From the NCBI GenBank assembly GCA_017983775.1, contig JAGOAT010000004.1:1-37354 (forward strand): a stretch of 37,354 nt of DNA. The letters are read 5' to 3'. Shown piece by piece: positions 10,553-22,451 of the stretch. The position numbers were made by a program, and so were the translations under genes. Under the pieces are notes generated by a model. It was given only the letters and a program-made list of their open reading frames with translations. It searched no databases and was not told where the DNA came from. Position 1 is the stretch's first letter. Each line of letters begins with the position of its first letter. The DNA comes from Candidatus Saccharibacteria bacterium (lineage in GTDB: Bacteria; Patescibacteriota; Saccharimonadia; JAGOAT01).

Positions 10553-11374
10553 ATCAAACAACTAATTAAAGTCTTAACAAAAACCCCGGTATCAGCTTAT
10601 AGCCTAGCCTTAAGCTACTGCATTATGTTGATAGTCAACGGCCTAGCTGGCTCAACAACCTTCATTAATCATCGGAATACCGCCGATGTATCCAATGCCA
10701 ATCTAACCCTCTTCACGCCGGCTGGTTTGACATTTGCCATCTGGGGAATAATCTACCTACTACTTGGAGTATACATCTTGTTTGCACTTGGCGTCATTAA
10801 GTTGCCCAAAGTCAAGCCAACCTCTGTGGTCTACCAAAAGATCAATGGGCTACTCACAATCTCTTCAATCATTAATATATTATGGTTATTATCCTGGCAA
10901 TTCGAAGTATTCTGGCTAACAATAGTCCTAATGATCCTACTCTTGTTGACCCTGATTAGGATACATACACTAGTTTTTGACCTGAAACTAAATACTCAGA
11001 AATCCCTTATACTTCGCATGCCCTTCAGTATTTATTTTGGCTGGATTAGTATAGCAACTGTAGCAAATATCTCTACGGCAATCGTAGCTTGGGACTGGGC
11101 AATGTTTGATAATAATCAAGCAATATGGATGATCGTCACAACCATTACTGCGACTCTTATTGGGCTAACCGTTGGCATTAACAGACAAGACCCTTGGTAC
11201 TTGCTTGTATATGTCTGGGCTTATTTGGGTATAATCATCAGACATCTTAATAATGCTCCTGAAGGATTTGATCAGCAATACCCAGAAATAATCATAGCAG
11301 TTAGCATAATGCTTGTGATTATCCTGGCAGTAATCACAAAATTAATTTTCAAGAGACATAAACCCAAGAAGTAA
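10553..11374 (+). CDS. TspO/MBR-like tryptophan-rich membrane protein, apparent ATC start
   Basis: A polytopic membrane protein of 273 aa if it begins at ATC 10553, or 249 aa from ATG 10625. The extra 24 codons read KQLIKVLTKTPVSAYSLALS, a positively charged head running into a hydrophobic helix, which fits a proper first membrane segment. The pattern LFTPAGLTFAIWGIIYLLL with many later Trp residues (LSWQFEVFW, VAWDWAMF, QDPWYLLVYVWAYLGI) is typical of TspO-like tryptophan-rich sensory proteins of bacteria, which bind tetrapyrroles or take part in stress responses. It follows the ATPase by 23 nt and probably shares its transcript. The ATC start is unusual; a sequencing error or a mutated start is possible. 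Confidence 0.7.
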   Translation: MKQLIKVLTKTPVSAYSLALSYCIMLIVNGLAGSTTFINHRNTADVSNANLTLFTPAGLTFAIWGIIYLLLGVYILFALGVIKLPKVKPTSVVYQKINGLLTISSIINILWLLSWQFEVFWLTIVLMILLLLTLIRIHTLVFDLKLNTQKSLILRMPFSIYFGWISIATVANISTAIVAWDWAMFDNNQAIWMIVTTITATLIGLTVGINRQDPWYLLVYVWAYLGIIIRHLNNAPEGFDQQYPEIIIAVSIMLVIILAVITKLIFKRHKPKK

Positions 11375-11481
11375 TCCATTAGCCTGATTTCTCAAAACTA
11401 TATATGGCTAGATAATTCTTAATAAAACTTGATCAAATAGTGTAATTAGTCCATCAACCCAACGACCTTAGGGCTTAAATT

Positions 11482-12163: not shown

Positions 12164-12625
12164 ATGACAAAAGAAATTGTTCCAAATCTATGGTTTGATG
12201 GAAAAGCCAAAGAGGCTGCTGAATACTATATATCGGTATTCCCGAATAGCAAGATTCTATCAATCGAGTATTACCCGAATAGTACAGAGGATGGCTTGGC
12301 TGAATTTCAATTGGAGTTAGCCGGACAACCCTTGGTAGTAGAATTTGAATTAAATAATCAACACTTTACTGCAATCAATGCCGGCCCTGAATTTAAATTT
12401 AGCGAAGCAATATCCTTTGCCGTGTTTTGTAAAGATCAGGAAGAAATAGATTACTACTGGAGTAAATTATCTACAGTGCCAGAAGCAGAACAATGTGGCT
12501 GGTGTAAAGACAAGTATGGTCTAAGCTGGCAAATCGTACCTGAGAATATTAATCAGCTTATGAAAAAACCGGATGCCTATAGTAAGATGATGGGGATGAG
12601 AAAGTTGATTATTGCAGAATTTTAG
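12164..12625 (+). CDS. VOC-superfamily protein, PhnB/YjdN-like
   Basis: A 153-aa protein beginning KEIVPNLWFDGKAKEAAEYY. It has the typical FPNSKI, FELNNQHFTAINAGPEFKFSE and CGWCKDKYGLSWQIVP segments of the PhnB-like branch of the vicinal-oxygen-chelate fold (older annotation: 3-demethylubiquinone methyltransferase-like). Such proteins are metal-binding or resistance-type enzymes, and the reaction cannot be told from sequence. AAGGAG precedes the ATG. It is a single gene divergent from the Nudix gene across repeat unit 2. Confidence 0.85.
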   Translation: MTKEIVPNLWFDGKAKEAAEYYISVFPNSKILSIEYYPNSTEDGLAEFQLELAGQPLVVEFELNNQHFTAINAGPEFKFSEAISFAVFCKDQEEIDYYWSKLSTVPEAEQCGWCKDKYGLSWQIVPENINQLMKKPDAYSKMMGMRKLIIAEF

Positions 12626-12666
12626 GAGCCCTTACCAAGCCCCTAGCACAGTACCCCTCTAGCTGT

Positions 12667-12672
12667 TAGAAT
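12667..12672 (+). promoter_or_regulatory. -10 element (TAGAAT) for leaderless UBP-type zinc finger mRNA
   Basis: TAGAAT ends 6 nt before ATG 12679, and no Shine-Dalgarno sequence is seen in between. Confidence 0.45.
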
Positions 12673-12678
12673 AAAATA

Positions 12679-13035
12679 ATGAATCAATATAATCTCTCCA
12701 ACCCAACTCCAGCACCCAGTGGTGATGGCTGTAAAGACTGCCTATCTAGTGACGGCTGGTGGGTACACCTTCGTCGTTGTCTAGAGTGTGGTCAGATTGG
12801 TTGCTGTAATAGCTCACCAAGTCAACATGCAAAAAAACATTGGCAAGAATCAGGGCACAAGCTGATTATGACTTACGAGCCGGAACAAGCTTGGTTTTAT
12901 GACTGGTCAAATGAACAAATGGTCAATCCACCATCAGAAAAAATAACTCCCCCTTTGAGTCACCCCATCGATCAATCTGCACCTGGCCCAGAATACCGCG
13001 TACCAGACAATTGGGAAGGCTTTCTCAATTATTAG
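12679..13035 (+). CDS. UBP-type zinc finger protein
   Basis: A 118-aa protein with CKDCLSSDGWWVHLRRCLECG, then CCNSSPSQHAKKHWQESGH. The Cys/His spacing is that of the ZnF-UBP domain, with WVHLRxCxxCGxxxCCdsS and xHAxxHxxxxxH as its signature. In eukaryotes this fold binds the ubiquitin tail. In bacteria it occurs as small stand-alone proteins of unknown role, often with C-terminal segments like the WFYDW...NPPSEKITPPLSHP here. No partner is visible nearby. Bases 13036-13232 downstream hold no gene or clear terminator. Confidence 0.88.
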   Translation: MNQYNLSNPTPAPSGDGCKDCLSSDGWWVHLRRCLECGQIGCCNSSPSQHAKKHWQESGHKLIMTYEPEQAWFYDWSNEQMVNPPSEKITPPLSHPIDQSAPGPEYRVPDNWEGFLNY

Positions 13036-13232
13036 ACTGATCATTATTGAAGCTTACTTTGATCATCAACCCAATAACTGAGTTGCTTTCATTCTCTATA
13101 GGGGCTTTACTATCACCAAAATATCAAAAATTGATTTATGGGCAAAAATTACATCATATGCCCACTACAAGATAGTGGTCGACTTATTTTCTTAGTTTAC
13201 CACTTTTACCGAGCTAATAATTCATTTATTTA

Positions 13233-15879: not shown

Positions 15880-17085
15880 CTATTGCTTGTTGTTTTCAAT
15901 AAAAGTTAGCGCGTAACCAATTCTACCTGCCCTGCCAGTTCTACCAATACGATGAACATAATTATCATAAGTTTGGGGCAATGAATAATTGATCACATGA
16001 GAAATATCAGAAACATCAAGCCCCCTAGCTGCTACATCAGTAGCGACCAAAACCTTGACCTCACTACGCTTGAACCGGTGAAGAACTTTTTGACGTTGAG
16101 ACTGGTTGCGGCCTCCATGAATAGCATCCGCCAAGAATCCCCTACTCGCCAATTCCTTCGAGAGAGACTCGACACCACGTTGAGTGTCTTCAAATATTAT
16201 CGTCTTCGTCGTGGTTTCTTTGACCAAGACAGCGTGTAGCATATCAAGCTTATTATCAGATCTGTGACTGATGATATTTTGCTCAATATTACTACTCGTG
16301 TCTCCAGATTTTACAGAAATATGGACGGGATTATTTGAGAATTTCTCTATAATGCCTTGCACCCTCTGGTCCAAAGTAGCTGAGAAATATAGATTCTGCC
16401 GTCGTGGATCAGTGTGAGACAAGATTAGTGATATATCTTTGACAAAACCCATGTCCAGCATCCTATCGACTTCGTCCAGAACTACCATATTACAATCATT
16501 AAGCCTAAGTGATTTGCGCTCCAGATGATCTTTGACTCTACCTGGTGTGCCAATAATTATCCTGGGGTTGCGGCGTAAATCTCGAAGCTGCAAACCTATT
16601 GGCATTCCGCCTATTAGCAAAGCGCTATCCAGTTGACTCGTTTTGCCAATCTCTCTACAAGCCTGCTCTATCTGCTCTGCCAATTCTCTTGTCGGTGCAA
16701 TAATTACAGCCTTTGATCTGGAGTCATTGAGCAATCTATGGATTACGGGAATAGCAAAAGCTGCTGTTTTACCCGTACCAGTATTGGCAATACCAATCAC
16801 ATCCTTGCCTATCAAAGCTGGAGGTATTGCTTGGTCTTGAATTGCGGTTGGGATCTTGTAGCCCATATTCTTAAGATTTGTATTGACCCTTGGATTCAAT
16901 TTGAAATCATCAAAATAATGCGTTGGCTGGTAAGCCTGAACTACACTAGGTCTTGCCTGACGAATAAATTTTGAGGGGTCTATATAATCTTTTTTTGGTC
17001 CTCGTTTTGATCGCCGTTGACGAGATGAGCTGAAAACTTTACCCTGACTCTTGCGAGCAGAATAGTGAGAAGATTTTTGATACAT
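15880..17085 (-). CDS. DEAD-box (DEVD) ATP-dependent RNA helicase
   Basis: Unwinds structured RNA in ribosome assembly or mRNA turnover. The protein is 401 aa. It has a basic 50-residue N-terminus, the Q-motif region (PTAIQDQAIP), NTGTGKT (101-107), PTRELAEQ (131-138), GTPGR near 179-183, DEVD (204-207) in place of DEAD, then SATL. The C-terminal RecA domain carries ATDVAARGLDV and HRIGRTGRAGR. The DEVD change keeps the Mg-binding Asp-Glu and should not kill ATP hydrolysis. The start at ATG 17085 has a TAAGGA site. An unusually long leader (about 100 nt) with a hairpin precedes it, suggesting regulation such as cold response or autoregulation. Confidence 0.94.
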   Translation of the reverse strand: MYQKSSHYSARKSQGKVFSSSRQRRSKRGPKKDYIDPSKFIRQARPSVVQAYQPTHYFDDFKLNPRVNTNLKNMGYKIPTAIQDQAIPPALIGKDVIGIANTGTGKTAAFAIPVIHRLLNDSRSKAVIIAPTRELAEQIEQACREIGKTSQLDSALLIGGMPIGLQLRDLRRNPRIIIGTPGRVKDHLERKSLRLNDCNMVVLDEVDRMLDMGFVKDISLILSHTDPRRQNLYFSATLDQRVQGIIEKFSNNPVHISVKSGDTSSNIEQNIISHRSDNKLDMLHAVLVKETTTKTIIFEDTQRGVESLSKELASRGFLADAIHGGRNQSQRQKVLHRFKRSEVKVLVATDVAARGLDVSDISHVINYSLPQTYDNYVHRIGRTGRAGRIGYALTFIENNKQ

Positions 17086-17119
17086 GATAATAAATCCTTA
17101 CATGATTAGATAATAATTA

Positions 17120-17145
17120 GTCGATTGTCTACAATGAAAATCGAC
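17120..17145 (-). promoter_or_regulatory. Hairpin in the helicase mRNA leader
   Basis: GTCGATT and AATCGAC form a 7-bp stem with a 12-nt loop. It lies inside the predicted leader between the -10 at 17188-17193 and the start codon at 17085. RNA helicase genes are often controlled through their leaders; the role here is inferred. Confidence 0.4.
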
Positions 17146-17292: not shown

Positions 17293-17326
17293 AGGGGGGC
17301 CTCGAAGAAATCTTCGAGGCCCCCCT
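17293..17326 (-). terminator. Very strong intrinsic terminator (16-bp perfect stem, AA loop, T-tract)
   Basis: A GGGGGGCCTCGAAGA arm and its exact complement, separated by two A bases, run from 17294 to 17325, with one more A-T pair outside. On the minus strand the stem is followed by TCTTTTTAG, so it terminates leftward transcription just after the 32-aa peptide gene and insulates the helicase gene. Confidence 0.85.
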
Positions 17327-17333
17327 GTTCTGA

Positions 17334-17432
17334 CTAGCGACGTTTTCTCATCACTAGCCAGAATATTACTACTGTAGGCATTACGGCAATTGCCGTAATG
17401 CCTACTAAGCTGTATATAAGCGAGGAATCCAC
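17334..17432 (-). CDS. 32-residue single-pass membrane peptide
   Basis: GTG 17432 is preceded by AAAGGAGG at good spacing, and the frame ends in TAG 8 bases before the strong terminator. The peptide is a short N-terminus (MDSSLIYS), one hydrophobic helix (LVGITAIAVMPTVVIFWLV) and a basic tail (MRKRR). It is therefore a tail-in-cytoplasm single-span peptide like those that bind larger membrane complexes. A perfect 32-bp palindrome (17374-17405) spans its codons 10-20. No family is recognised. The ribosome binding site, frame and terminator together make this convincing as a real gene. Confidence 0.6.
   Translation of the reverse strand: MDSSLIYSLVGITAIAVMPTVVIFWLVMRKRR
17374..17405. repeat. 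Perfect 32-bp palindrome inside the 32-aa peptide gene
   Basis: The 16-bp half-site GTAGGCATTACGGCAA is followed directly by its exact complement, with no loop bases. As RNA it could form a hairpin covering a third of the small gene. As DNA it could bind a dimeric protein. Confidence 0.9.
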
Positions 17433-17495
17433 GATACCTCCTTTCGCCTGTGGATCTTAATCCTATCATAACTAGAACAATCCTGATATAGCCCC

Positions 17496-18525
17496 GTAAT
17501 CATCCAGCACCTTTGCAACATAAATGGTAGGCGTCCTAAAAGGAGCCTACCATGGCTTATTCTAACAACCCTAACCTACCTAAAGCTAGAGTAGTTGCTA
17601 TGCAATTACTCTTCAAAGAGCAACTACCCTTGTTGGTTGTTGCTAACAAGTGTGGTGTACACCGTAGTACTGTCTACCGTTGGTAGCGTAAATAGAGCGA
17701 GCTCAATAAGCACGTCCAACTCACCAACGACAATCGTCCAAACAGAATACAACCCTCACCAAGTAGTACCTTCCGATTAGCAGTGTGTATATGGCGTATT
17801 CCTACCCTAACCTCCAGACCTCCTACCAACCCAACTGCCGTCAGTGAAGAGCTGAGACAACTAGTGCTTACTGTAAGAGCACAACTGAAGCGCTGTGCCG
17901 AGGTAGTCTGGCATCACCTTGTAACGGTATTGTCTGTTTCAGTAGTGTCAGACGTATCCTATGGAGGTCTGGGGTTGCTCGAGGACGAACTAACTGTATC
18001 CGTAGAGATAATCCTAGAAGGCCACACCCCACCAGACCTGGAGAACTTGTACAAACAGACACTATTCACCATCTAGACCCAAGAACAGGTAGACGGCTGT
18101 ATTGCTACACTGTCATTGATCTATTCACTAGAATGACTCATGTTGCATTAGCACCCAAACTCAGACAAGGACTAGCTGTTCAGGCTATACTGCAAGCCCA
18201 AGCTGTCTGAGGCTTTCCCATTGTCATGGTTCAAGCCGACAACGGACCAGAGTACCAAAGATACTTCGAACAGCAAATGAAGCGAGTAAATATCACTACC
18301 AGACACCGTAGACTACACCGACCCAATGACAATGCACATATTGAGAGATTTAACCGAACAGTCCAGACAGAATGCATTGGTTACTATTGGAACAGGAGCG
18401 TTTCGCTCCCGTCCCAGCAAATCAAGTTAACTGCTTGGCTTGCATACTACAACACCAGGAGAGTACACTTAGGAATACAGTTACTGACACCTATACAGAT
18501 GTTGCAAAGGTCTTGAGTTGTTTAC
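17496..18525 (+). mobile_element. Degraded IS481-like insertion sequence with imperfect terminal inverted repeats
   Basis: The left end 17496-17521 and right end 18499-18525 are inverted repeats. They share a perfect inner 12-mer (CCTTTGCAACAT and its complement) and a partly matched outer GTAA. The length is about 1.03 kb, right for the family. The enclosed transposase is broken by stops and frameshifts, so the element cannot move by itself. No target duplication was recognised at the ends. Confidence 0.75.
17552..18516 (+). pseudogene. IS481-like transposase, multiply broken
   Basis: A ribosome binding site (AAAAGGAG) and ATG 17552 open a 44-codon helix-turn-helix segment ending GVHRSTVYRW, then TAG at 17684. 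The same frame resumes later with ISRPPTNP-type residues and RAQLKRCAEVVWHHL. It then shifts by two, giving the DDE core GELVQTDTIHHLDPRTGRRL, CYTVIDLFTRMTHVAL, VQADNGPEYQ and HIERFNRTVQTE, ending LTPIQMLQRS. A TGA at 18208-18210 breaks the core. All three catalytic acidic positions are still readable, so the decay is fairly recent. Confidence 0.85.
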
Positions 18526-18680
18526 GTAGCCCCTAGCACCTTAATCCAATAATACTTCAAGATCCCTATCAAAAAATTTCTAAGATCAATCTAGGCAGAC
18601 TCTTGAATCCGAGCCATCCATATCAGTCACATATCGTGCTACTGAACCGTGAAAAATCAATTTCCGTGACTATTTTTGCT

Positions 18681-20435
18681 CTAGCTATCTAGCCCTAGCC
18701 TCACAGAAAGCTCTTGAAGCTGCCCATCATCGACTTGACTTGGGCTACTCATCATCAAATCCACTCCTGAGCCATTTTTCGGAAAAGCAATAACCTCTCT
18801 AATATTGTCCTCCCCCATCAACTCCATAAACATCCGATCAATTCCAAAAGCACACCCTGCATGCGGTGGAGCACCGTATTTGAAAGCACCAATCATTGCT
18901 CCAAATTTACTATCAACATATTCTCGTGAATGGCCAAGCACCTCAAAAGCCCTGTACATTGATTCCGGATGATAATTACGAACACCACCTGAGCAAATCT
19001 CATAACCATTCATCACCATATCATATTGATCAGCCAAGATCGCTAGCTTATCTTCTCTGTCAAAATCCTGAGGACCATTAAGTGGCATAGTAAATGGATT
19101 GTGTCCAAAATCCAGCTTACCTGTAGTAGGATCGATCTCATAAAATGGAAAATCAACTATCCAGGCTAGTGCCAAAATATTTGGATCTTTTAGGTTTAGA
19201 TCTGCGCCAAGCTTATTGCGCAAAGTCCCCAGCACCTGATTGACTTTAGGTTTATCACCAACACCAAAGAAAATTGTATCCCCCTCTTCTGCCTCGGTAA
19301 TTTGAACAATTGATTCAAGCTCTTGATCGGTGAAGAATTTGGCTATTGAAGAGACAGCAGTACCGTATTCGACTTTGAGATATGGCAATCCTCCAGCTCC
19401 ATTGAGTTTTACAAAATCAGTTAAGCTATCCAGGTCTGATCGACTAAAGCTACTTGGCGCAACGATTGCCTTGACCACGCCTCCAGATTTAATTGCATTG
19501 GCAAATACGCCAAATTCCGTACTAATCAAAATTTCTGACAAATCCACCAACTCCATCTCAAAACGCAAATCTGGCTTATCACTGCCATATCTATCTAGTG
19601 CTTCAGTATAGCTAAGTCTTGGTATCTTATCCGTTTTCAAGCTTTTGCCAGCAAAATTGCTTACCAAGTCAACGATCAACGGTTCGATAAGCTTGCGAAC
19701 CTCTTCACCATTTTCGACAAAAGACATTTCCATATCTAGCTGATAGAATTCACCGTACAGTCTATCAGCCCTGGGATCCTCATCACGAAAACAAGTAGCC
19801 ATTTGATAATACCTAGGTACACCAGCAGTCATCAATAGTTGCTTGAACTGCTGTGGGGCTTGAGGCAAAGCATAAAACTTACCAGGATGTAGCCTAGATG
19901 GCACTAGAAAATCTCTCGCACCCTCAGGACTGGAATTTGCCAATACTGGTGTAGTAATCTCTACAAAGTCTTTGGATCTCATAAAGTCTCTGATCTGATT
20001 AAAATATTCCGAACGCTTGACGAGCATCTTCTGCATCTTCTCACGCCTTAGATCAAGATAGCGATACTTCAATCTCAATTCTTCATTGACCGTCTGGGTT
20101 TCGTTGATTGGGAAAGGTAGGGCTTCTGATTTATTAAGCACTACCAAATCATCCAATATAATCTCAATTCTGCCCGTTGTAAGATTTGGGTTAATTAGAC
20201 CTTCTGCCCTATCAACTACCTTCCCAACAGCTCTGATTACAAATTCATCTCGCAAACTTTCTGCAAGTTCAAAATGCTTATGATCAGCATTGATTGTCAA
20301 TTGAACTATCCCTGTATGATCTCGCAAATCGACAAAAATTAGACCCCCATGGTCTCGACGTGAATTAACCCAACCCTCTACCTTTACGGTTTTTCCTACC
20401 TGATCTATTGTTGTATTTGCTAGTATCCTTTGCAT
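18681..20435 (-). CDS. aspS: Aspartyl-tRNA synthetase
   Basis: Charges tRNA-Asp (or tRNA-Asp/Asn). From ATG 20435 the protein is 584 aa, the usual bacterial length. It has an N-terminal OB-fold (VEGWVNSRRDHGGLIFVDLR), class II motif 2 (YQMATCFRDEDPRADR), the bacterial GAD insertion (about 300-400, SEILISTEFGVFANAIKSGG onward) and motif 3 (APPHAGCAFGIDRMFMELMG). FPKNGSGVDLMMSSPSQV near the end is also typical. Whether it is discriminating cannot be told from sequence by eye. The start is chosen because TATAAT lies 7 nt before it; the earlier ATG 20486 is upstream of that promoter. Confidence 0.97.
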   Translation of the reverse strand: MQRILANTTIDQVGKTVKVEGWVNSRRDHGGLIFVDLRDHTGIVQLTINADHKHFELAESLRDEFVIRAVGKVVDRAEGLINPNLTTGRIEIILDDLVVLNKSEALPFPINETQTVNEELRLKYRYLDLRREKMQKMLVKRSEYFNQIRDFMRSKDFVEITTPVLANSSPEGARDFLVPSRLHPGKFYALPQAPQQFKQLLMTAGVPRYYQMATCFRDEDPRADRLYGEFYQLDMEMSFVENGEEVRKLIEPLIVDLVSNFAGKSLKTDKIPRLSYTEALDRYGSDKPDLRFEMELVDLSEILISTEFGVFANAIKSGGVVKAIVAPSSFSRSDLDSLTDFVKLNGAGGLPYLKVEYGTAVSSIAKFFTDQELESIVQITEAEEGDTIFFGVGDKPKVNQVLGTLRNKLGADLNLKDPNILALAWIVDFPFYEIDPTTGKLDFGHNPFTMPLNGPQDFDREDKLAILADQYDMVMNGYEICSGGVRNYHPESMYRAFEVLGHSREYVDSKFGAMIGAFKYGAPPHAGCAFGIDRMFMELMGEDNIREVIAFPKNGSGVDLMMSSPSQVDDGQLQELSVRLGLDS

Positions 20436-20442
20436 AGCTGCT

Positions 20443-20448
20443 ATTATA
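20443..20448 (-). promoter_or_regulatory. -10 element (TATAAT) for leaderless aspS mRNA
   Basis: TATAAT on the minus strand ends 7 nt before ATG 20435, with no Shine-Dalgarno sequence between. This is the clearest case, as the protein start is fixed by homology. Confidence 0.65.
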
Positions 20449-20514
20449 ACATGCAAAGACCAAGATTTTGATGATTTTATTGCCATCGACGGAAACTCAC
20501 CGCCTCCAAGAATT

Positions 20515-20574
20515 CGAGGTCTAACCTCGAATTCACAGACCTCAACAGATCAAAACCATCGAGGTCTAACCTCG
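20515..20574 (+). repeat. Bipartite REP-like unit 4
   Basis: Two identical palindromes (CGAGGTCTAACCTCG) at 20515-20529 and 20560-20574, with starts 45 bp apart. AACAGAT lies between them on the plus strand. This is the first unit in this orientation. It lies upstream of aspS and downstream of DUF5996. Confidence 0.9.
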
Positions 20575-21797: not shown

Positions 21798-22451
21798 ATG
21801 CCTAGTCGCAATGTAGTAAGAGAACACTTACCCAATACCTTTTACCATGTCTATAATCGTGGTAATCGTAAATCACAAATTTTCTTCAATGATAGGGACT
21901 ATTCGAAGTTCATGTCAATTATCCTATTCCTATTAACCCCCAGACAAAATCTTGCAAACGGTCTAAAAATATTTTCAAAACCAAGAACAAAGAACCAGAA
22001 TTTCAGCCAAACAATCTACTTGATCAATATCGTCTTGATGCCAAATCATTTTCACCTACTCTTATACGTTAAGGATCCTAAGGCTCTGGAAAAATTAATG
22101 CATAGATTGAGTCAAAAATTTACCAAACTAATCAATGACAACTACCTACTGACCGGTAGACTATTCCAGGGAGTCTATAGAGCTAGACCAATAATGTCAG
22201 AAGGTGATCTAATAAATACGGCTGCGTATATCCACCTAAATCCAAATGAATTAAGCCCAGATAATTCTGATTATTACCTAGAATATCCATACTCTGATCT
22301 CACAACTAGTCATCCGATATTAGAAGTTGGTAATTTTGACCTGCTCCTAAATAAAGCCCGTATCAATATAGATGAGTATAATGAGTATCTGTCCAGCAAG
22401 TCAAAAGACTTTGTCGAGAAACAATTGATCAAAAAGATCGAGCATCAATAA
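21798..22451 (+). CDS. REP-associated tyrosine transposase (RAYT, Y1/HUH family)
   Basis: A 217-aa single-strand-cutting transposase of the IS200/IS605-related RAYT group, known to act on palindromic REP hairpins. It begins with the family's YHVYNRGNRKSQIFF segment. The HUH metal-binding pair is in MPNHFHLLLY (H84, H86). The catalytic Tyr candidate is Y144 in INTAAYIHLNPNEL. All three look intact. It is bracketed by near-identical repeat units 5 and 6, and seven more units lie elsewhere in the window, so it is the likely source of their spread. No Shine-Dalgarno sequence is seen; TATACA lies 4 nt before the ATG. Confidence 0.9.
   Translation: MPSRNVVREHLPNTFYHVYNRGNRKSQIFFNDRDYSKFMSIILFLLTPRQNLANGLKIFSKPRTKNQNFSQTIYLINIVLMPNHFHLLLYVKDPKALEKLMHRLSQKFTKLINDNYLLTGRLFQGVYRARPIMSEGDLINTAAYIHLNPNELSPDNSDYYLEYPYSDLTTSHPILEVGNFDLLLNKARINIDEYNEYLSSKSKDFVEKQLIKKIEHQ

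What the first reader, a model, noticed from the sequence alone, without database searches (positions are those of the whole stretch)
17293..17432. 32-residue membrane peptide gene containing a perfect 32-bp palindrome and a 16-bp terminator
A peptide gene with AAAGGAGG, GTG start and TAG stop holds a loopless 32-bp palindrome across its coding part and ends just before one of the strongest hairpins in the window. The palindrome would shape the mRNA or bind a dimer, so the gene could be a dual-purpose coding/regulatory RNA.
Basis: partly seen in the sequence, partly recalled or inferred. Interest (0 to 1): 0.55.

Follow-up and report, generated by a model that had tools for sequence, protein, structure and literature searches.

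The report
Tiny membrane-peptide gene made of hairpins
A 32-codon stretch that looks like a tiny membrane-protein gene in a small-genome bacterium folds, as RNA, into three back-to-back hairpins, the last of them a terminator; what it does is untested, and the gene itself is likely but not proven.

Summary
On the minus strand lie an AAAGGAGG site, a GTG start and a 32-codon frame with a hydrophobic core and an RKRR tail. It contains a perfect 32-bp palindrome and is followed by a 16-bp hairpin with a U-run. It is the most stable stretch, for its base composition, in the 409 kb of this genome that I scanned. A second locus (contig C3) has a strikingly similar layout with unrelated sequence: hydrophobic reading-frame end, 21-bp palindrome in it, hairpin over the stop, hairpin after it. 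Two more hairpin arrays lack a convincing frame. No relative of the peptide was found, so conservation could not be tested. The frame alone is weak evidence: resampled DNA gives about one such frame per 409 kb. Best reading: a short membrane-peptide message whose codons form hairpins, resembling type I toxin messages in form; no antitoxin was established. Main rivals: an untranslated structured RNA, or palindromes left by replication template switching. A degenerate insertion sequence sits 63 bp upstream of the start.

The parts
17437..17444 (-). Shine-Dalgarno site AAAGGAGG, 4 nt before the GTG
   Evidence: with the next two bases (AAAGGAGGTA, 17444-17435) complementary to the 16S 3' end of the same genome
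17334..17432 (-). 32-codon reading frame VDSSLIYSLVGITAIAVMPTVVIFWLVMRKRR, one hydrophobic span, basic C-terminus
   Evidence: best 19-residue Kyte-Doolittle mean 2.43
17374..17405 (-). hairpin H1: perfect 32-bp palindrome inside the hydrophobic codons (14-bp stem, AAUU loop in the fold)
17328..17363 (-). hairpin H2: 15 pairs incl. 3 G-U, 6-nt loop; spans the C-terminal codons and the stop
   Evidence: on the plus strand three mismatches
17293..17326 (-). hairpin H3: intrinsic-terminator-like, 16-bp arms, then CTTTTT
17496..18526 (+). degenerate insertion sequence beside the element, between it and the aspartyl-tRNA synthetase gene; ends approximate; TAGCCCC stands on both sides (17489-17495, 18527-18533)
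   Evidence: left end shared with four other places of the genome; flanks printed; rve_3 in frame 18226-18516 (53.2 bits, cut-off 26.5), sub-threshold helix-turn-helix in 17552-17686, nothing in 17783-18076

Best explanation
A short transcription-unit end on the minus strand that encodes a 32-residue single-span membrane peptide with a basic tail, whose message folds into three consecutive hairpins (H1 in the membrane-span codons, H2 over the tail and stop, H3 the terminator). Shown: the sequence features, the predicted fold, the excess of structure over synonymous versions. Inferred: that it is transcribed and translated; that the hairpins slow or gate translation and protect the RNA, keeping a membrane-active peptide at a low level, in the manner of type I toxin messages; that the insertion sequence 63 bp upstream of the start came later and altered its supply of transcripts.
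For: Shine-Dalgarno of 10 nt matched to the genome's own 16S end; a spacing of 4 nt between GGAGG and start is common here (11 of 67 GGAGG-led frames of 120 aa or more, uncurated). Coding-region fold lower than 1,999 of 2,000 synonymous versions. Rank 1 of 20,316 strand-windows for stability given GC. A second locus, L160 8231-7942 minus, has the same order (hydrophobic C-terminal frame ...MSAKRVFIATAVAFATAVAIKAIRRA, hairpin with 21-bp arms in it, hairpin over the stop, hairpin after it) and holds rank 2; its 81-aa frame folds more stably than all 2,000 synonymous versions and shows a zinc-ribbon-like N-terminus (Pfam hits all under their cut-offs). Arrays of three or more hairpins: window, L160 and L161 in 409 kb of own DNA, 0 in three Markov resamplings. 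In these, the window and L160 are the only arrays met anywhere in which all three hairpins score 28 or more.
Against: No homolog: best E 0.0097 (for one genome) among 391 other class genomes, inside a 456-aa frame; 49 of the 391 have hits at E 0.5 or less, and the 33 hit loci held show no array of hairpins. Pfam, PHROGs and PDB none, NCBIfam one hit at E 0.11 under its cut-off (PVV-CTERM tail), phages best E 3, plasmids E 8. Markov-resampled DNA yields 0-2 short frames with AGGAGG and a hydrophobic span per 409 kb against 2 observed. Codon usage gives no support: -1.7 log-odds over 31 codons, but six reference genes score only -0.017 to 0.078 per codon, so the test has little power. Given the peptide, a stem of 14 or more pairs arises in 47 of 2,000 synonymous versions. 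A strand-blind count gave 11 G-U to 5 A-C over four arrays (window 2 to 1), not decisive. No sigma-70-like site on the minus strand upstream of the start as far as 18700. Two of the four arrays carry no convincing frame by eye. Single strong hairpins are no commoner here (47 of score 28 or more in 409 kb) than in four relatives (46 in 400 kb).
Confidence: 0.45

Rival explanations
1. An untranslated structured RNA or an elaborate multi-hairpin terminator; the reading frame is accidental. This genome has at least two similar hairpin arrays without a convincing frame.
For: L161 11231-11444 minus (5 hairpins, tail TTCCTTTT) and the L162 array (about 12620-12800 minus, ending in a 16-bp hairpin and CCTTTTTT) have no frame that looks like a protein to me. 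Markov-resampled DNA gives 0-2 comparable frames per 409 kb. The upstream neighbour beyond the insertion sequence is aspartyl-tRNA synthetase reading the same way, so H3 could simply end that unit.
Against: A ten-base Shine-Dalgarno, a stop codon just before the terminator and a hydrophobic-basic peptide all falling inside one 160-nt element would be a coincidence; a terminator needs neither H1 nor H2. No Rfam family reaches its gathering score there or in L160-L162 apart from a tRNA.
Confidence: 0.3
2. The palindromes are mutational: replication template switching turned imperfect inverted repeats into perfect ones, with little function. The frame may be real or not.
For: The mechanism is published: template switching can create perfect stems in one event (PMC8794818, abstract and opening lines seen), and perfect palindromes inside working protein genes exist in Nematomorpha mitochondria (PMC6649704, abstract seen). 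In frames of 120 aa or more I counted 7 perfect hairpins with arms of 11 or more in 468 kb here against 1 in 366 kb from four relatives; with arms of 10 or more 17 here (codon-shuffle expectation 5.7) against 1 there (3.6). One is a 17-bp hairpin inside a 235-aa gene (L166 13082-13119).
Against: Does not explain why three hairpins lie side by side and end at a terminator. The 7-to-1 excess is small-number, the expectation rests on three shuffles, and at least two of the 7 lie at the very edge of stop-to-stop frames, one of them (window 20510-20534) upstream of the gene's start.
Confidence: 0.2
3. The 32-bp palindrome is a DNA site for a dimeric protein.
For: Perfect dyad symmetry.
Against: No second copy in the own genome at E 0.001, no exact 26-bp core in viral contigs; it sits inside a frame rather than at a promoter; its neighbours H2 and H3 have the same geometry with unrelated sequence.
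Confidence: 0.05

Closest known systems
Membrane-associated type I toxins (LdrD, AapA1, Fst and others)
   Same: Under 60 residues, hydrophobic, one putative membrane helix, cationic residues usually at the C-terminus (criteria from PMC8309996, passages seen); strongly structured message
   Different: No antitoxin RNA established, no sequence relative, no toxicity data; the hairpins lie in and after the coding part, while the published hallmark is a sequestered ribosome-binding site (PMC6733600, passages seen), which here is only variably paired in the fold
Coding palindromes of Nematomorpha mitochondrial genes (PMC6649704, abstract seen)
   Same: Perfect inverted repeats inside protein-coding sequence
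   Different: There up to 284 bp in conserved genes; here 32 bp in a 32-codon frame without relatives, in a bacterium
Rickettsia palindromic elements (recalled; the term occurs in PMC10969869, search listing only)
   Same: Palindromes lying in frame inside genes
   Different: Those are repeated families (recalled); this sequence is single-copy in its genome at E 0.001
CsrA-sequestering RNAs (CsrB/RsmZ, recalled)
   Same: String of hairpins ending in a terminator
   Different: No GGA in the loops here (AAUU, AGAAAA, AUUU)

Membership tests
Type I toxin-antitoxin system | toxin peptide under 60 aa, hydrophobic, membrane helix, cationic end | tested here: met
   by sequence only: 32 aa, RKRR end; hydropathy 2.43; criteria
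Type I toxin-antitoxin system | antisense or divergent antitoxin RNA | tested here: inconclusive
   consensus scan shows one weak plus-strand site, 17107-17135 (9 of 12), that would read towards the element; 6 sites found against 4.0 expected by chance in the region
Type I toxin-antitoxin system | ribosome-binding site sequestered in the full-length message | tested here: inconclusive
   SD unpaired 0.30-0.85 and start codon 0.07-0.94 depending on the transcript ends assumed
Type I toxin-antitoxin system | sequence relatives among known toxins | tested here: not met
   no significant hit in Pfam, NCBIfam, PHROGs, PDB, phages, plasmids; such short peptides are easily missed
Type I toxin-antitoxin system | toxicity on expression | not testable with these tools
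   needs a bench test
Intrinsic terminator (H3 only) | GC-rich stem followed at once by a U-run | tested here: met
   (15 pairs, 11 of them G-C, then CTTTTT)
Repeated palindromic element (RPE, REP) | several copies in the genome | tested here: not met
   only matches to itself in the own genome at E 0.001

The most novel reading that the evidence does not exclude
This bacterium carries a small class of membrane-peptide genes whose coding sequence is itself a chain of hairpins (hydrophobic-span palindrome, stop-codon hairpin, terminal hairpin), with the layout kept while the sequence differs completely between members. The shared order at the window and at L160 would then mean that the RNA architecture, not the peptide sequence, is what selection holds.
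Probability: 0.15. Interest if true: 0.7.

Novelty: new variant of a known kind. Interest (0 to 1): 0.38.

Why it matters
If translated, it is a case of a coding sequence and a nearly continuous RNA structure sharing the same bases in a reduced genome, and a hint that such bacteria keep structured short membrane-peptide genes that annotation misses. The two-locus architecture makes a clear, cheap prediction to test.

Tried and rejected
Relatives of the peptide: the class-level protein search gave only chance-level hits. A first look at ten of the hit loci printed the locus plus strand, right for only 3 of the 10; one search read all 33 held hit loci on the strand of the hit: 7 lie in open frames of 70 codons or fewer, none of the 7 has a strong hairpin nearby, and no locus has a hairpin array. 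DNA search in 294 class genomes: 151 have a hit at E 1, own included, but the best foreign ones are short fragments of single hairpins; the one spanning H1 and H2 (G019, 75% over 61 nt, E 9e-4) lies in a long frame that I take by eye for a GroEL-like gene.

Synteny: 29 helicase homologs of the class with 1.5-kb flanks: 12 have a strong hairpin, none has two within 500 nt, none an array. 80 named helicase loci, the best 80 of 182: 14 arrays at 10 loci in 709 kb, all weaker than those of this genome (summed score at most 88.5 against 109 window, 111 L160, 153 L161); from their organisms and stem make-up I take most for GC-rich DNA, not checked. 29 synthetase loci: one weak array (L184, sum 64). 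So loose hairpin arrays are not unique to this genome; the strength of the two here is what stands out.

Rfam with permissive threshold: all 20 matches below gathering scores. Insertion-sequence end as source of the palindrome: rejected, the end shared by L014-L017 carries a different inverted repeat. The first array script (diagnosed) missed overlapping hairpins and was replaced; its control is first-order Markov resampling in 500-base blocks, not an exact shuffle. The L162 array is below the threshold and is known only from the energy scan. CsrA-sponge and DNA-site ideas rejected as above. The empty site joined was cut one base short on one side; only the printed flanks are used.

Full report
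What is there. The finding's coordinates are right and everything reads on the minus strand. From upstream to downstream: AAAGGAGG (17444-17437), four bases, GTG at 17432, 32 codons, TAG at 17336-17334, and a strong terminator hairpin at 17326-17293 followed by CTTTTT. The Shine-Dalgarno with its next two bases is complementary over ten bases to the 3' end of the 16S rRNA of the same genome, found at L168 14857-16475. The palindrome 17374-17405 is exact.

Folding the minus strand shows a third hairpin, 17328-17363, between palindrome and terminator: 15 pairs with a 6-nt loop, taking in the last sense codons and the stop. The unpaired gaps are 10 nt (17364-17373) and 1 nt (17327). On the plus strand the three G-U pairs become mismatches, which fits, but does not prove, selection on the minus-strand RNA: a strand-blind recount over four arrays gave 11 G-U to 5 A-C, for the window alone 2 to 1, against 78 to 88 for hairpins of the sample at large.

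More than chance. In the window no other perfect hairpin with a loop of at most 10 has arms over 11. In 409,191 bases of the genome (window plus 20 stretches) four hairpins with loops of at most 8 have arms of 16 or more, two of them here. In a stability scan corrected for GC content, this element ranks first of 20,316 strand-windows (z -7.45), L160 second (-7.2), L162 third (-6.62), L161 fourth (-5.57); then L160 again (-4.63), and the next new place is at -4.09. Arrays of three or more hairpins occur at three loci (window, L160, L161), at none in three Markov resamplings, at none in 400 kb from four relatives of the same class, and at none in a further 132,998 own bases. Against uniqueness: the same scan finds 14 arrays in 709 kb around 80 named helicase genes and one in 115 kb around 29 synthetase genes, all weaker (summed score at most 88.5 against 109, 111 and 153 for window, L160 and L161), and none with all three hairpins scoring 28 or more, as window and L160 have. 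Single strong hairpins are as frequent in the four relatives (46 in 400 kb) as here (47 in 409 kb).

The second locus. L160 (contig C3, positions 20001-40000) carries, on its minus strand at 8231-7986, an 81-codon frame whose N-terminus looks like a zinc ribbon (best Pfam match E 0.00089, 19.2 bits, cut-off 29) and whose C-terminus is hydrophobic with RRA at the end. A hairpin with 21-bp arms lies in the hydrophobic codons, a 12-bp one over the stop, a 13-bp one after it, and three more in the zinc-ribbon part. Its sequence is unrelated to the window element by eye, and it has no homolog in 60 relatives. An inner ATG preceded by GGGAGG could also start a 26-residue peptide; which start is used is unknown. 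Unlike H3, its last hairpin has no clear U-run (CTGATTTAC).

Is the frame real? For: the Shine-Dalgarno, the hydrophobic-basic profile, the stop just before the terminator, the parallel at L160. Against: no homologs in 391 other class genomes, no support from codon usage (a weak test here), and Markov-resampled DNA gives 0 to 2 such frames per 409 kb where 2 were seen. I put the frame being translated at roughly 0.6 (judgement). Given the peptide, the fold is stronger than 1,999 of 2,000 synonymous versions, though the longest stem is matched by 47 of 2,000.

Surroundings. The element lies between a DEAD-box helicase gene (15880-17085, minus) and an aspartyl-tRNA synthetase gene (18681-20486, minus). 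The helicase has a promoter-like site of its own in between (17216-17188, 10 of 12). A degenerate insertion sequence (an rve_3 piece and a sub-threshold helix-turn-helix in separate frames) separates the element from the synthetase; TAGCCCC stands on both sides of it and its left end recurs at four other places of the genome. Without it the synthetase stop and the GTG would stand about 210 bp apart in the same direction, so the element's terminator may have served the synthetase too. The host is, by inference from genome size (0.79 Mb, 97.4% complete) and the organisms that hold the closest named helicase relatives (Moraniibacteriota, Saccharibacteria, Collierbacteria and others), a Patescibacteria-type bacterium; I have no name for it, and the 60 relatives share only its class.

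Mechanism. Most likely, in my judgement (0.45): a message for a small membrane peptide whose own codons form hairpins that damp translation and protect the RNA. Transcription, translation and effect are all inferred. It works, on paper, like a type I toxin message, but membership is not established: no antitoxin shown, no relatives, no toxicity data (membership table).

In print. Full-text searches of one open-access library: Saccharibacteria with 'small membrane proteins' gave one paper, on secretion systems; Patescibacteria with 'type I toxin-antitoxin' none; Candidate Phyla Radiation with 'small proteins' and 'noncoding RNA' one, on Borg elements; Saccharibacteria with structured RNA, intergenic and hairpin (three of four terms) 302 papers, of which the 20 listed do not contain 'saccharibacteria' and the rest were not seen. 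I found no description of such genes, within those limits.

Noticed in passing
L161 (G000:C5:1-20000) 11231-11444 minus: Array of five hairpins with tail TTCCTTTT between two genes (a KsgA-like and a peptidase-like one, by eye); no convincing reading frame, no Rfam family.
   Followed up: partly
L162 (G000:C5:20001-40000) about 12620-12800 minus: Four hairpins in a row ending in a 16-bp hairpin and CCTTTTTT; third most stable place of the energy scan, below the threshold of the array scan.
   Followed up: partly
L166 (G000:C9:1-20000) 13082-13119: 17-bp perfect hairpin inside the coding part of a 235-aa frame, just before its hydrophobic stretch.
   Followed up: no
L159 12201-12320 and L164 7721-7840: Palindrome TCGCGGACAGTCCGCGA, two copies at each of two places: a candidate repeated element.
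   Followed up: no
window 17496-18526; L014-L017: Degenerate insertion sequence with TAGCCCC on both sides, and four other places in the genome that carry its left end.
   Followed up: partly
window 21798-22451: Protein with an IS200-like Y1 transposase domain (Pfam PF01797, 29.7 bits, cut-off 23).
   Followed up: no
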